A stretch of 6,631 nt of DNA from JALXCG01 sp026991065 [NCBI: Gemmatimonadota bacterium]. GTDB lineage: Bacteria; GCA-2686955. The position numbers and the translations under genes are program-made. Positions within the stretch are counted from its first letter, which is position 1; each line of letters begins with the position of its first letter. The DNA is taken from positions 1 through 6,631 of the forward strand of contig JALXCG010000292.1 in assembly GCA_026991065.1 (NCBI GenBank). Direction: 5' to 3'. Of the stretch, positions 1,203-4,574 are shown piece by piece. The notes under the pieces were generated by a model, which was not told the origin of the DNA, did not search any database, and was given only the letters and a program-made list of their open reading frames with translations.

Positions 1203-1915
1203 AGCTGCCGACAGAGGTCGAACTGCGGGCACTCTACACGCGGCTCAATGTCGAGCACTTCGCCTCGAGGCTGCCGGAGGCCGTCATCACATGGTCCACG
1301 CGGATGAGAAGCTCCGCGGGAATCTGCTATCCCACTCGCCGACTGATTCGCCTTTCGGTGCGCTACTGCGAAACCTACCCACAGGATCTTGTCCCGGTCC
1401 TGCTGCACGAGATGATTCACTTGCTGCATCCCGACCATGGCCGGGCGTTCAAGGCCGAAGCCGCGCGGGTTGGAGCGTTGCTTCACGCTCGCCCCACCTC
1501 AGCGGCGGAGCAGCGTCCATGGAGGTGGTTCGCGCAGTGCCCACATTGCAGCCGGCACTGGCTTTATAGAAACCGACGCAAGCTTTTCTGTCGCCATTGT
1601 CGGGACTGGCGCGGGCGACACCCGGCACTGGAGTTTCGGCGTCTGCCCGGGAGTCCCCGCTCAGCGGCTGAAGCGACGCGGCTGGTGGCGAGAGTCATGG
1701 GTGAAAAACACGCAGTTCCCGAGCGGATGCGACAAAGTGGCGGTTCAGCCCACAAACTGCAGGTGAGTTACAACGTAGAGCGCCATCGCCACGGCAATCG
1801 CCAGAGCAGGCGTGGCGAGCCAACCGGAAAAGATGCCGAGAACCGCCCGAAAACGTACCGTTTCGATGCTCTTCAGCACCCCGACACCAAGAACCGCCCC
1901 GACAACCGCCTGTGA
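1199..1915 (+). CDS. SprT-like zinc metalloprotease with C-terminal zinc ribbon
   Basis: The predicted protein has 238 residues. The start is TTG 1199, overlapping the HEAT gene stop as TTGA. No ATG or GTG lies in frame between the preceding stop (near 1153) and the conserved domain. Residues 6-95 match a SprT/SprT-like domain: an LYTRLNVEHF segment, the WSTRMRSSAG strand region, then HEMIH at 70-74 (HExxH, catalytic Glu71). His80 in HGRAF is the likely third zinc ligand. Residues 114-134 form a zinc ribbon with CPHC and CRHC pairs. The family includes eukaryotic Spartan, a DNA-protein crosslink protease; the bacterial substrates are poorly defined. Residues 183-238 are read antisense to the 3' end of the pit gene and are basic and low in hydrophobic residues. 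The ancestral protein probably ended near residue 150-180, so this tail may be read-through after loss of the original stop. Confidence 0.88.
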   Translation: MKLPTEVELRALYTRLNVEHFASRLPEAVITWSTRMRSSAGICYPTRRLIRLSVRYCETYPQDLVPVLLHEMIHLLHPDHGRAFKAEAARVGALLHARPTSAAEQRPWRWFAQCPHCSRHWLYRNRRKLFCRHCRDWRGRHPALEFRRLPGSPRSAAEATRLVARVMGEKHAVPERMRQSGGSAHKLQVSYNVERHRHGNRQSRRGEPTGKDAENRPKTYRFDALQHPDTKNRPDNRL

Positions 1916-2689
1916 AGAGGAGACCGGAACGCCGAGCATCGCATAGGCGTGGACCGTCAACGCCTGCGCGAGAACCACAATGAACGCGCCGTAGGCATTG
2001 AGCCGGACGATCCCTTTCCCAACAGTCATCATGACACGGCGACTGTAGGTAACAATCCCCAGCGCAATCGCGGCCCCGCCCACGAGGGCGGCGGAGAGAG
2101 GCGTGAGTAAACCGGCGCCGACAAAAACGCCGGTAACATTTGCGACATTGTTGGCGCCAAGCGCATACGCACCGTAGGAACCTACCACCAGCAAGGCCAG
2201 ACGCAGGACTCCATCGTAGATGGTAATGTGGTTGCCGAGACGATTGGCCAGCGGCGTCAAAACCCGATAAAGCAGCAGCGCGACCAGGAATGCGCCGATT
2301 GGTGTGCCAATCCAGCAACCGACAATTTTCGGTAGACCGGATGTATCCACGCCTCCCTTGAAGACCCCCACGCCGATCACCGCCCCAACGACAGCTTGTG
2401 AAGTGGAAACCGGCAGGCGCAGGAAGGTGAGGAGGGTGACTGCGATCGCCGCGGCCAGAGAAGAAAGAGTCGCCGATTCGGCATCGAAGCTCGAGAGCGC
2501 GCCGACCGTGTGCATTCCCGCCTCGCCCTCCAGAACTGCCCCGAGGATCACGAATGCAGATGCAAGAAGTGCCGCCGTCCAGAAGCGCACCATGCGTGAT
2601 GCAACTGCGGTGCCGAACACGTTGGACGCGTCGTTCGCCCCCAGTGACCATCCCAAATAGACCGGAGCCAGAAAATTCAACCAACTCAT
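1745..2689 (-). CDS. pit: PiT-family inorganic phosphate transporter
   Basis: The predicted protein has 314 residues and starts at ATG 2689, 15 bases after the stop of the DUF47 gene, with a G-rich GATGGGG just upstream. It is a polytopic inner-membrane protein of the PiT family, which imports phosphate (often as a metal-phosphate complex) driven by H+ or Na+. The internal duplication typical of the family is plain. GANDASNVFG at 18-27 is echoed by GANNVANVTG at 178-187. VSTSQAVVGAVIGVG at 94-108 is echoed by VSSSQAVVGAVLGVG at 256-270. The Asp and Asn residues in the GAND/GANN motifs are the expected substrate and ion ligands. Its length fits the shorter bacterial and archaeal PiT members, lacking the long central loop of E. 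coli PitA. The last 171 bases are overlapped by the SprT frame on the opposite strand. Confidence 0.95.
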   Translation of the reverse strand: MSWLNFLAPVYLGWSLGANDASNVFGTAVASRMVRFWTAALLASAFVILGAVLEGEAGMHTVGALSSFDAESATLSSLAAAIAVTLLTFLRLPVSTSQAVVGAVIGVGVFKGGVDTSGLPKIVGCWIGTPIGAFLVALLLYRVLTPLANRLGNHITIYDGVLRLALLVVGSYGAYALGANNVANVTGVFVGAGLLTPLSAALVGGAAIALGIVTYSRRVMMTVGKGIVRLNAYGAFIVVLAQALTVHAYAMLGVPVSSSQAVVGAVLGVGVLKSIETVRFRAVLGIFSGWLATPALAIAVAMALYVVTHLQFVG

Positions 2690-2704
2690 AAAGGCCCCAT
2701 CGGA

Positions 2705-3361
2705 TCAGGCACGCCGCTTGGCGCCCACCATCAGAAGACGATCCGCTGTGTTCTCGGCCAAGTCGGTCAACCCCGCACAGAGCATGATCACTTCGCGCAG
2801 GGATAGCTTCTGGATCGTCGGCAGATCGGATGAGAAAAGGCGGGTAAGCATTCCGCGCTCAAAAAAATCGCAGCGACTTTCCGCCTGGTCGATCGAAACC
2901 ACCAAAGGATGCACATCCTCTTCAAGGTGAAAAACCATCCCGGCTATCGCGTGCAGGGTCTTCAACGCGGCTATCGTTTCGCGCAACATCGACTCTGCCT
3001 CGGGCACCAGTGCCGACGGGAAACCCACTCGGAGCAGCGATATTGTTACCAATATGGATTCAGTCCGATTGGGAATGCGATCCAATTGCTCCAGCAGCCC
3101 TACAATGTCCCCTCTCGATTCCGGCAGGAGACTCTTCTGGTACATGCGATACTCGATCGTTCGTCGCAGTTCGTCCGCCTGCGATTCCGCCTTTCGGATC
3201 TCCTCGACTTTGCAGGAAAAATCGTCGGTCATCCCATTCTGTAGGTAGATTGGCATGGCGACATCGAAGATATCGATGCACGAGTTCCATGCACCGAGAT
3301 AGGCCCCGTAGAGCTTCTCAATCTCCCGCTGGTGGCGAAATAGATAGTCAAGAAACTTCAT
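2705..3361 (-). CDS. DUF47 / PhoU-like accessory protein of Pit
   Basis: The predicted protein has 218 residues and starts at ATG 3361 with the family-typical opening MKFLDYLFRHQ. Only a weak GAG-containing ribosome site is seen. The product is all helical with no membrane segment. It carries the features of DUF47 (TIGR00153 type) PhoU-like proteins: a conserved E-A-D-R helix in the first third (residues about 48-67), the DRIPNRTESI region near 93-102, and a C-terminal LTDLAENTADRLL segment. Such genes are repeatedly found directly upstream of pit, as here with a 15-base gap, and are thought to modulate the transporter. The exact mechanism is not established. Relation to true PhoU of the Pst system is structural; no pst genes are visible. 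It lies 51 bases downstream of the selenoprotein gene on the same strand. Confidence 0.9.
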   Translation of the reverse strand: MKFLDYLFRHQREIEKLYGAYLGAWNSCIDIFDVAMPIYLQNGMTDDFSCKVEEIRKAESQADELRRTIEYRMYQKSLLPESRGDIVGLLEQLDRIPNRTESILVTISLLRVGFPSALVPEAESMLRETIAALKTLHAIAGMVFHLEEDVHPLVVSIDQAESRCDFFERGMLTRLFSSDLPTIQKLSLREVIMLCAGLTDLAENTADRLLMVGAKRRA

Positions 3362-3412
3362 GGATCACAAACTCGCGGGCCACGCCCCGGCCACACGTGC
3401 AGGAGGAGCGGC

Positions 3413-3640
3413 TTATTGGCTTTTGGCACGCAAGAGGTCGAGGATCTCTTGCTCGGTAGGGAAGACCCCTGTTTGGTATTTCGAGTAGATCACTTGATCA
3501 TCAACGGCAACATCGAATATCCCGCGGCTACCGCGAATCAACTCAACCGTTGTCCCAAGGTCACGACGAATGGCGGCTTCCAACCTGGAAGCTTCCGGCA
3601 GGTAGTTTCACTGCACGCAATAGGTAATGGTCACTTTCAT
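3413..3640 (-). CDS. Rdx/SelW-like selenoprotein with in-frame UGA (Sec11)
   Basis: From ATG 3640 the frame reads MKVTITYCVQ, meets TGA at 3610-3608, then continues without interruption to TAA 3415-3413, for 75 residues in all. After the TGA come NYLPEASRLE, then VELIRGSRGIFDVAVDD and the YSKYQTGVFPTEQEI segment. These are the hallmark blocks of the Rdx (SelW/SelT/SelH) thioredoxin-like family, and the UGA falls exactly where that family has Sec or Cys in its CxxU/CxxC redox motif (Cys8, Sec11). GGAGAGG sits 6 bases before the ATG and decides this start, although the frame is open further upstream to 3793. A hairpin at 3576-3592 fits a bacterial SECIS element. The likely role is a small cytosolic thiol/selenol redox protein; its substrate is unknown. 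The alternative is a recent nonsense mutation in a Cys homologue, less likely given the hairpin and intact downstream frame. A standard gene call would miss or truncate it. Confidence 0.87.
3576..3592 (-). promoter_or_regulatory. Putative bacterial SECIS hairpin
   Basis: On the coding (minus) strand a perfect 6-bp stem GCTTCC/GGAAGC encloses the loop AGGTT. The loop begins 22 bases after the UGA. Known bacterial SECIS elements lie immediately downstream of the UGA inside the coding region. They have a short apical stem and carry a G within the first two loop positions; E. coli fdhF uses an AGGUCU loop. Position, loop sequence and stem all fit. An alternative fold pairing GGAA with TTCC (3587-3596) could compete. 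Not tested by folding. Confidence 0.75.
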
Positions 3641-3860
3641 TGAGAGCCTCTCCAGGCAAAGGTAGAATTGAAACACCCTGACGAAGACCGGTCGCGCGCC
3701 CCCCGGCTGGGCTACTGATCTCCATTCAGGATCTCTGGCAAGAAAATGATAGTAGCGTTCCGGCTTCCGGTTTGGCACGGAGAAACTGGTCACTTCCGGA
3801 GAAACCCACGCTCGGTTCCTGGTGGCGGGAACGAGTGAAAGATCGATCGAAGGGAGAGCG
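3641..3860. other. Divergent intergenic region between selenoprotein and phosphoesterase genes
   Basis: These 220 bases must hold the promoters for both the minus-strand selenoprotein-phoU-pit unit and the plus-strand phosphoesterase. No convincing -35/-10 pair, sigma-54 site or operator was found by eye. The minus-strand frame is open through part of it (to 3793), but the encoded residues look random, so it is treated as non-coding. Confidence 0.5.
3647..3653 (-). promoter_or_regulatory. Ribosome binding site of the selenoprotein gene
   Basis: GGAGAGG ends 6 bases before ATG 3640. It is the reason for choosing this start rather than one of the upstream in-frame ATGs (up to 3793). The bases GAGA-GGC-TCTC over the site could form a very small hairpin, a minor point. 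Confidence 0.7.
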
Positions 3861-4574
3861 ATGGCAAAGGAGACATTGGTGATCGGGGATGTTCACGGTT
3901 GCGCTGGAGAGTTGCGGCGCCTCCTCGAATACAGCGCCTTCGATCCCGCGCGCCATCGGGGCATCTGCACCGGCGATCTCTATACGCGTGGTCCCGACCC
4001 CCGGGGAGTGTGGCATCTGCTGCGCCGGTTCCGACTCGAAGCGGTTCGCGGCAATCACGAGGACTACCTGCTCGACGCTCTTCCGCAGCTCCCTGCCGAC
4101 GATCCAACGCTCAGCGCGATCTCCCCGGATGCGCGCGCCACGGCCCGTGCCTTCGACGGACGGCAACGGTCGGCCCTCTTGCGGGCGCTGCGCGACTTGC
4201 CCAGTGCCCTCCACGGGCCCCGCCGCGCAGGTAGCCACGAGCCCGCCTGGATCGTCGTGCACGCTGGAATAGATCCGCGCCGAGGCATTGAGTCTTCCGC
4301 TGATCCAAGAACCTGCACACGCATCCGTTACTGGCCACCGGGGGCCCCGAAATCCCACCACTGGCACGAATTCTACCAGGGAGAGACGCTTCTGGTGTTT
4401 GGGCATGACGCCGTCGGCGGCCTGGTGGAGCACCGCACTGCCGACGGCCGGCCGCGCGCAATCGGAATCGACACCGGCTGTGTCTACGGAGGCCGGCTGA
4501 CCGGCTACTGGATTGAGCGCGACAGCCTGGTATCGGTGCCCGCGGAGCGTGCGTGGTGGCCGATCAGATCGTAG
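3861..4574 (+). CDS. ApaH/PPP-like metallophosphoesterase
   Basis: The predicted protein has 237 residues. ATG 3861 is preceded by AGGGAG four bases away. A 39-base in-frame extension from ATG 3822 lacks such a site and precedes the first conserved strand, so it was not used. The metal-binding motifs of calcineurin-like phosphoesterases occur in order: GDVHG (9-13), GDLYTRGP (38-45), RGNHED (63-68), VHAGI (133-137) and FGHD (180-183), followed by IGIDTGCVYGG (201-211). HAG rather than HGG and the IDTGCVYGG end resemble symmetrical Ap4A hydrolase (ApaH) and PrpE-type enzymes. The second motif has Thr where protein phosphatases have Asp (GDxVDRG). Substrate is therefore open between dinucleoside polyphosphates and phosphoproteins. 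It is soluble and cytoplasmic, and shorter than E. coli ApaH. Its 3' end overlaps the convergent glgC by 11 bases. Confidence 0.9.
   Translation: MAKETLVIGDVHGCAGELRRLLEYSAFDPARHRGICTGDLYTRGPDPRGVWHLLRRFRLEAVRGNHEDYLLDALPQLPADDPTLSAISPDARATARAFDGRQRSALLRALRDLPSALHGPRRAGSHEPAWIVVHAGIDPRRGIESSADPRTCTRIRYWPPGAPKSHHWHEFYQGETLLVFGHDAVGGLVEHRTADGRPRAIGIDTGCVYGGRLTGYWIERDSLVSVPAERAWWPIRS

What the first reader, a model, noticed from the sequence alone, without database searches (positions are those of the whole stretch)
3413..3640. Hidden selenoprotein: Rdx/SelW-like gene with in-frame UGA at codon 11
The frame from ATG 3640 stops at TGA 3610-3608 after a TYCVQ segment. The next codons continue in the same frame as a well-formed Rdx-family protein (NYLPEASRLE, GSRGIFDVAVDD, TGVFPTEQEI) to a TAA. 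The UGA is precisely at the Sec/Cys position of the family CxxU motif. The observation is direct; Sec decoding is inferred from family knowledge. Automated annotation would give a truncated upstream frame or nothing at this locus.
Basis: partly seen in the sequence, partly recalled or inferred. Interest (0 to 1): 0.85.

Follow-up and report, generated by a model that had tools for sequence, protein, structure and literature searches.

The report
Bacterial SelW-like selenoprotein gene
A small bacterial redox-protein gene very probably reads an internal stop codon as selenocysteine, and its genome carries the machinery for it; this is a real but ordinary new member of a selenoprotein family known since the 2000s.

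Summary
Confirmed. Minus strand 3640-3413 encodes a 75-residue Rdx/SelW-like protein whose codon 11 is TGA (3610-3608), at the second position of the family's CxxC/CxxU motif. Read through, it matches Pfam Rdx (68 bits, cut-off 22.6). The same genome has selA, selB, selD (itself with an in-frame TGA) and tRNA-Sec with anticodon TCA. The TGA is conserved: 7 of 8 matches in 60 genomes, 13 of 14 named-contig loci; 61 of 76 Rdx matches in 386 genomes hold one TGA. A hairpin 16-32 nt after the UGA fits the published bacterial SECIS rules. In 34 Sec loci it pairs 176 of 204 positions, against 134.9 (sd 4.6) after synonymous recoding; in 14 Cys loci 40 of 84 against 37.9. The predicted fold matches solved SelW-related proteins. 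But SelW-like is among the commonest marine bacterial selenoprotein families in print, and a Campylobacter member has Ribo-seq and proteomic support. New member of a known kind; low interest.

The parts
3413..3640 (-). selW-like gene, 75 codons plus TAA, with in-frame TGA at codon 11
3608..3610 (-). TGA, predicted selenocysteine codon 11 (second position of CxxU)
3617..3619 (-). TGC, Cys8, first position of CxxU; invariant in 21 of 21 aligned rows
3576..3592 (-). predicted bacterial SECIS hairpin inside the coding frame: arms 3592-3587 and 3581-3576, loop AGGUU 3586-3582 (or 7 bp with loop GGU)
3647..3653 (-). likely ribosome-binding sequence GGAGAGG, 6 nt before the ATG
   Evidence: read; not tested
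2705..3361 (-). downstream neighbour: DUF47/PhoU_div protein, not shown to belong to the selenoprotein system
1745..2689 (-). downstream neighbour: PHO4-family transporter, not shown to belong to the selenoprotein system

Best explanation
A bacterial SelW-like (Rdx family) selenoprotein gene. The UGA at codon 11 is decoded as selenocysteine: the hairpin that starts 15 nt after it recruits SelB with Sec-tRNA(Sec), made by SelA with selenophosphate from SelD. The product is a 75-residue protein of thioredoxin-like fold whose Cys8-x-x-Sec11 pair lies between the first strand and the first helix, and which most likely works as a small thiol/selenol redox protein through a Cys-Sec bond. Shown here: conserved codon, machinery genes, conserved hairpin, predicted fold. 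Inferred from established knowledge of bacterial Sec decoding and of the family: actual Sec insertion and redox activity. Unknown: substrate and reductant.
For: Family match over the whole frame. selA 502.8 bits, selB 341.3, selD 317.8, each over cut-off; tRNA-Sec 73.5 bits against a gathering score of 47, ARAGORN anticodon tca. SelB is split over two contigs whose ends share 127 identical bases. TGA in the same column in the one other held genome of the family, 61% identical, and in loci recorded as Planctomycetota, Myxococcota, Pseudomonadota, Acidobacteriota and Zixiibacteriota. Hairpin: 176 of 204 pairs in 34 Sec loci, 0 of 1000 synonymous recodings as high; 40 of 84 in 14 Cys loci, 263 of 1000 as high. 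Published bSECIS rules with the bare hairpin's energy at or below -7.5 kcal/mol: 23 of 34 Sec loci, window included (5.4 expected from recoding), 1 of 14 Cys loci (2.1 expected). Fold model pLDDT 95.7; best PDB match 2fa8, TM 0.89 by query length. selA over cut-off in 5 of 6 other Sec-form genomes and 2 of 9 Cys-form genomes that I chose out of 73.
Against: No direct evidence of translation. One Sec-form genome of the 6 tested (G032, 86% complete) had no selA hit. No Rfam family matched the hairpin. The window's hairpin taken alone is not exceptional: 7% of its synonymous recodings score as high and the 56-nt fold has z -1.09. In the 19-locus pair count, pairs with a change on both sides (2) were no more than shuffles give (294 of 500 as high), though paired cells and covariation score beat 500 of 500. 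11 of 34 Sec loci miss the strict bSECIS test. 13 of the 14 Cys loci form one separate subfamily, so they are not a matched control.
Confidence: 0.95

Rival explanations
1. Sequencing or assembly error: the codon is really TGC or TGT and the protein an ordinary Cys form.
For: Cys homologues exist (the 14 stop-free loci read have TGC or TGT); the genome is fragmented, 902 contigs.
Against: The same TGA in the sister genome and in over 30 other loci, with a conserved hairpin that the Cys set lacks.
Confidence: 0.01
2. Pseudogene: a Cys gene that took a nonsense mutation and is decaying.
For: None beyond the stop itself.
Against: No other stop in the frame; coding-type pattern of changes after the UGA in 17 of 18 comparisons; TGA conserved across phyla.
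Confidence: 0.01
3. UGA is reassigned genome-wide, or read through as another amino acid such as Trp, not as Sec.
For: That a frame is open with TGA read as a residue is no proof of Sec; the code was chosen by hand.
Against: Sec machinery and tRNA-Sec; TGA at the family's redox Cys; a SECIS-type hairpin after it. Four window genes end in TGA and have no TGA inside (HEAT, PHO4, DUF47, GlgC), and GlgC matches its model to the last position right up to that TGA, so UGA is an ordinary stop here.
Confidence: 0.02

Closest known systems
Bacterial SelW-like selenoproteins (PF10262 Rdx, CxxU; NCBIfam TIGR02174)
   Same: Length, CxxU motif, fold, in-frame UGA and downstream hairpin. In print for the Sargasso Sea (48 genes, the most abundant family; PMC1088965, passages), GOS (427 Sec, 56 Cys; PMC2398784, passages) and sequenced bacteria (PMC1794560, passages).
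   Different: Only the host seems new: a phylum of which 2 genomes are held here.
Campylobacter jejuni SelW (CJnc60)
   Same: Small SelW with a UGA read by tRNA-Sec; full-length translation supported by Ribo-seq and proteomics (PMC11955535, passages).
   Different: The window protein scores 86 against 88 bits on the Campylobacter equivalog NF041051; no expression data for the window gene.
Cys-form Rdx proteins (for example 2fa8, Agrobacterium Atu0228)
   Same: Same fold (TM 0.89); CxxC aligned with CxxU.
   Different: Cys instead of Sec; the 14 Cys loci read here lack the conserved hairpin.

Membership tests
Rdx / SelW-like (PF10262) | Sequence match to the family profile over its length | tested here: met
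   68 bits, profile positions 1-73 of 74, cut-off 22.6, with C for U
Rdx / SelW-like (PF10262) | Fold of the solved members | tested here: met
   Model pLDDT 95.7. The 22 PDB chains at E <= 0.001 come from 7 entries (2fa8, 2obk, 3dex, 2ojl, 2oka, 2p0g, 2ljk); 6 of the 7 also match by sequence, and 2p0g is titled selenoprotein W-related
Rdx / SelW-like (PF10262) | CxxC or CxxU motif after the first strand | tested here: met
   C8-V-Q-U11; columns 8 and 11 invariant in 21 of 21 rows, with C for U
Bacterial selenoprotein | selA, selB, selD and tRNA-Sec in the genome | tested here: met
Bacterial selenoprotein | Homologues with Cys or Sec at the UGA column | tested here: met
Bacterial selenoprotein | bSECIS: 3-9 nt loop with G in its first two positions, 4-16 bp stem, 16-37 nt after the UGA, MFE <= -7.5 (rules as printed in PMC13188914, passage) | tested here: met
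   Loop GGU, 7 bp, 22 nt after the UGA, -8.3 kcal/mol for the bare hairpin, by my own script and not by bSECISearch
Bacterial selenoprotein | Selenium in the purified protein, or a peptide spanning Sec11 | not testable with these tools
   No expression data available
NF041051 SelTWH_Campy equivalog | Score over the curated cut-off | tested here: not met
   86 against 88 bits with C for U; so not filed under this equivalog

The most novel reading that the evidence does not exclude
Sec-form SelW proteins in many bacterial phyla are one old subfamily that carries a single homologous bSECIS in nearly fixed register (loop mostly 21-22 nt after the UGA), rather than the product of repeated Cys-to-Sec changes; the window's sparsely sampled phylum is one more carrier. 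allow this but do not show it: the tree needs 2 changes of label at least and is poorly resolved.
Probability: 0.35. Interest if true: 0.35.

Novelty: new member of a known kind. Interest (0 to 1): 0.2.

Why it matters
It shows that a sparsely sampled phylum very probably uses selenocysteine, and that plain ORF calling cuts this gene: at a minimum of 60 aa the only frame listed there in its reading frame ends at the UGA. The contrast between Sec loci (hairpin well above synonymous recoding) and Cys loci (no excess) is a simple check for SelW-like genes in unannotated genomes. It does not change what is known of the family, whose role in bacteria is still open.

Tried and rejected
Rfam in the window: nothing at gathering score; in 3400-3700 with E up to 10, one miRNA match at E 5.5, taken as chance. 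The fold of the window hairpin alone was not significant, so loci were compared. The 19-locus pair count gave mixed signs (told under evidence against). Promoter and terminator scan of 3300-3900 gave one promoter-like and one terminator-like site, both on the + strand, so nothing for selW. Operon with DUF47 and the PHO4 transporter as a clue to function: 18.7 kb around selW in the sister genome G001 has HEAT, SprT, ApaH-like and GlgC relatives but no DUF47 or PHO4 hit, so dropped. Recurrent neighbours (ORFs of 80 codons or more within about 4.5 kb, 20 loci): the largest group, 5 loci, is ORFs on the opposite strand that overlap selW; the next, 4 loci (3 recorded as Myxococcota, 1 as Pseudomonadota), was not identified; no partner gene followed from this. 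Sec-form formate dehydrogenase: 8 matches in the genome, none over cut-off and none with a stop; the genome is 84% complete. SelW in plasmid records: 1 of 72,556, a chromosome-sized Klebsiella record, no lead. Tree of 33 Sec and 14 Cys forms: 7 of 43 inner branches well supported. Rows dropped: L028, L040, L042; L028 (read again as L062), L040 and the duplicates L063 and L070; L028, L040, L042, L063 and L070.

Full report
The observation. The minus strand of the window holds ATG 3640-3638, TGA 3610-3608 at codon 11 and TAA 3415-3413. Read with TGA as a residue, the 75-residue protein matches Pfam Rdx (68 bits, cut-off 22.6) and NCBIfam TIGR02174 (58.3 bits, cut-off 34.2); NF041051 is just missed (86 against 88 bits). 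These scores were computed with C in place of U. Four other window genes end in TGA and hold no TGA inside, so UGA is an ordinary stop here.

The machinery. The window is contig C292 of a genome of 4.14 Mb in 902 contigs, 83.81% complete. It holds selA (502.8 bits), selB (341.3 bits), selD (317.8 bits, with one TGA) and a tRNA-Sec (73.5 bits against a gathering score of 47; ARAGORN anticodon tca). SelB runs off the end of contig C45, and its C-terminal part lies at the end of contig C415; the two ends share 127 identical bases. The TGA of selD begins a UARK motif, which fits the UxxK motif given for SelD in PMC13188914 (passage), so the genome very probably makes at least two selenoproteins. 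No formate dehydrogenase alpha match is over cut-off, and none of the 8 matches found holds a stop.

Conservation of the TGA. In 60 genomes, own included, 8 had a match to the protein; 7 of 8, among them the sister genome G001 (61% identity), have one TGA, and the eighth has Cys. Of 14 loci in named genome contigs, 13 have TGA at the CxxU position; the other, L040, is a partial match that runs into another coding frame upstream and has no TGA. In 386 genomes, 73 had 76 Rdx matches: 61 with one TGA and 15 without a stop, one of the 15 too short to cover the motif. The 30 best of these 76 were fetched and read: 16 have TGA at CxxU and 14 have Cys. For the rest only the count of stops is known, apart from loci already read.

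The hairpin. The 48 nt after the TGA (or Cys codon) were compared in 34 Sec loci, window included, and 14 Cys loci. The stem +16 to +21 with +27 to +32 pairs in 176 of 204 cells; synonymous recoding with the codon use of five window genes gives 134.9, sd 4.6, none of 1000 as high. In the Cys loci it pairs in 40 of 84 cells against 37.9, sd 2.6, 263 of 1000 as high. Under the bSECIS rules printed in PMC13188914 (passage), with the energy taken for the bare hairpin, 23 of 34 Sec loci qualify against 5.4 expected, and 1 of 14 Cys loci against 2.1 expected. The window qualifies: 7 bp, loop GGU, 22 nt after the UGA, -8.3 kcal/mol. Alone it would not stand out (z -1.09; 7% of recodings as strong). 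Limits: one codon-use table for all loci, some near-identical loci in both sets, and a Cys set of which 13 of 14 form one separate subfamily.

Fold and function. The model (Cys in place of Sec, 21-row alignment) has mean pLDDT 95.7, with strand 3-8 followed by helix 14-28, so Cys8 ends the first strand and residue 11 lies before the first helix. The best PDB matches are 2fa8 (titled putative selenoprotein W-related), 2obk and 3dex. A redox role follows from the family: PMC1088965 says that the function is unclear and that CXXU suggests redox (passage). The substrate is not known, and neighbours gave no clue that I could use.

Machinery and form. Of the 73 Rdx-bearing genomes I chose 15: selA is over cut-off in 5 of 6 with the Sec form and 2 of 9 with the Cys form. 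The exception among the Sec forms, G032, is 86% complete.

Place among the known. [quoted passage not shown] PMC1088965, passages) and heads the GOS table (427 Sec, 56 Cys; PMC2398784, passages). It also appears in sequenced bacteria of the 2006 survey (PMC1794560, passages) and is listed as PF10262, CxxU, predicted with high confidence, in a 2026 review (PMC13188914, passages). SelW genes missed by annotation are reported for Epsilonproteobacteria (PMC4607533, passages), and in C. jejuni full-length translation is supported by Ribo-seq and proteomics (PMC11955535, passages). Three paper searches were made. The window's gene is therefore a new member of a known kind. Its phylum was not named by the tools used; a search of the phylum covered 2 genomes, the own one and G001.

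Noticed in passing
G000 contig C739 (L010), selD: selD of the same genome has its own in-frame TGA (UARK motif): probably a second selenoprotein.
   Followed up: partly
window 1745-3361: selW is followed on the same strand by DUF47 and PHO4-transporter genes; 18.7 kb around selW in the sister genome G001 has no DUF47 or PHO4 hit.
   Followed up: partly
L040 2110-2280: A SelW 3' part, hairpin included, is joined upstream to another coding frame without the SelW start or the TGA: assembly chimera or a broken gene.
   Followed up: no
genomes G128, G264, G363: Each holds two Rdx matches, one with a TGA and one without: Sec and Cys paralogues in one genome.
   Followed up: no
L066 (genome G219): A Cys form that groups loosely with Sec forms, in a genome that has selA: possible Sec-to-Cys change, but on a long branch.
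   Followed up: no
window 3416-3643, + strand: A 75-aa ORF lies antisense to selW; similar opposite-strand ORFs overlap selW at 4 other loci, probably mirror images of the coding sequence.
   Followed up: no
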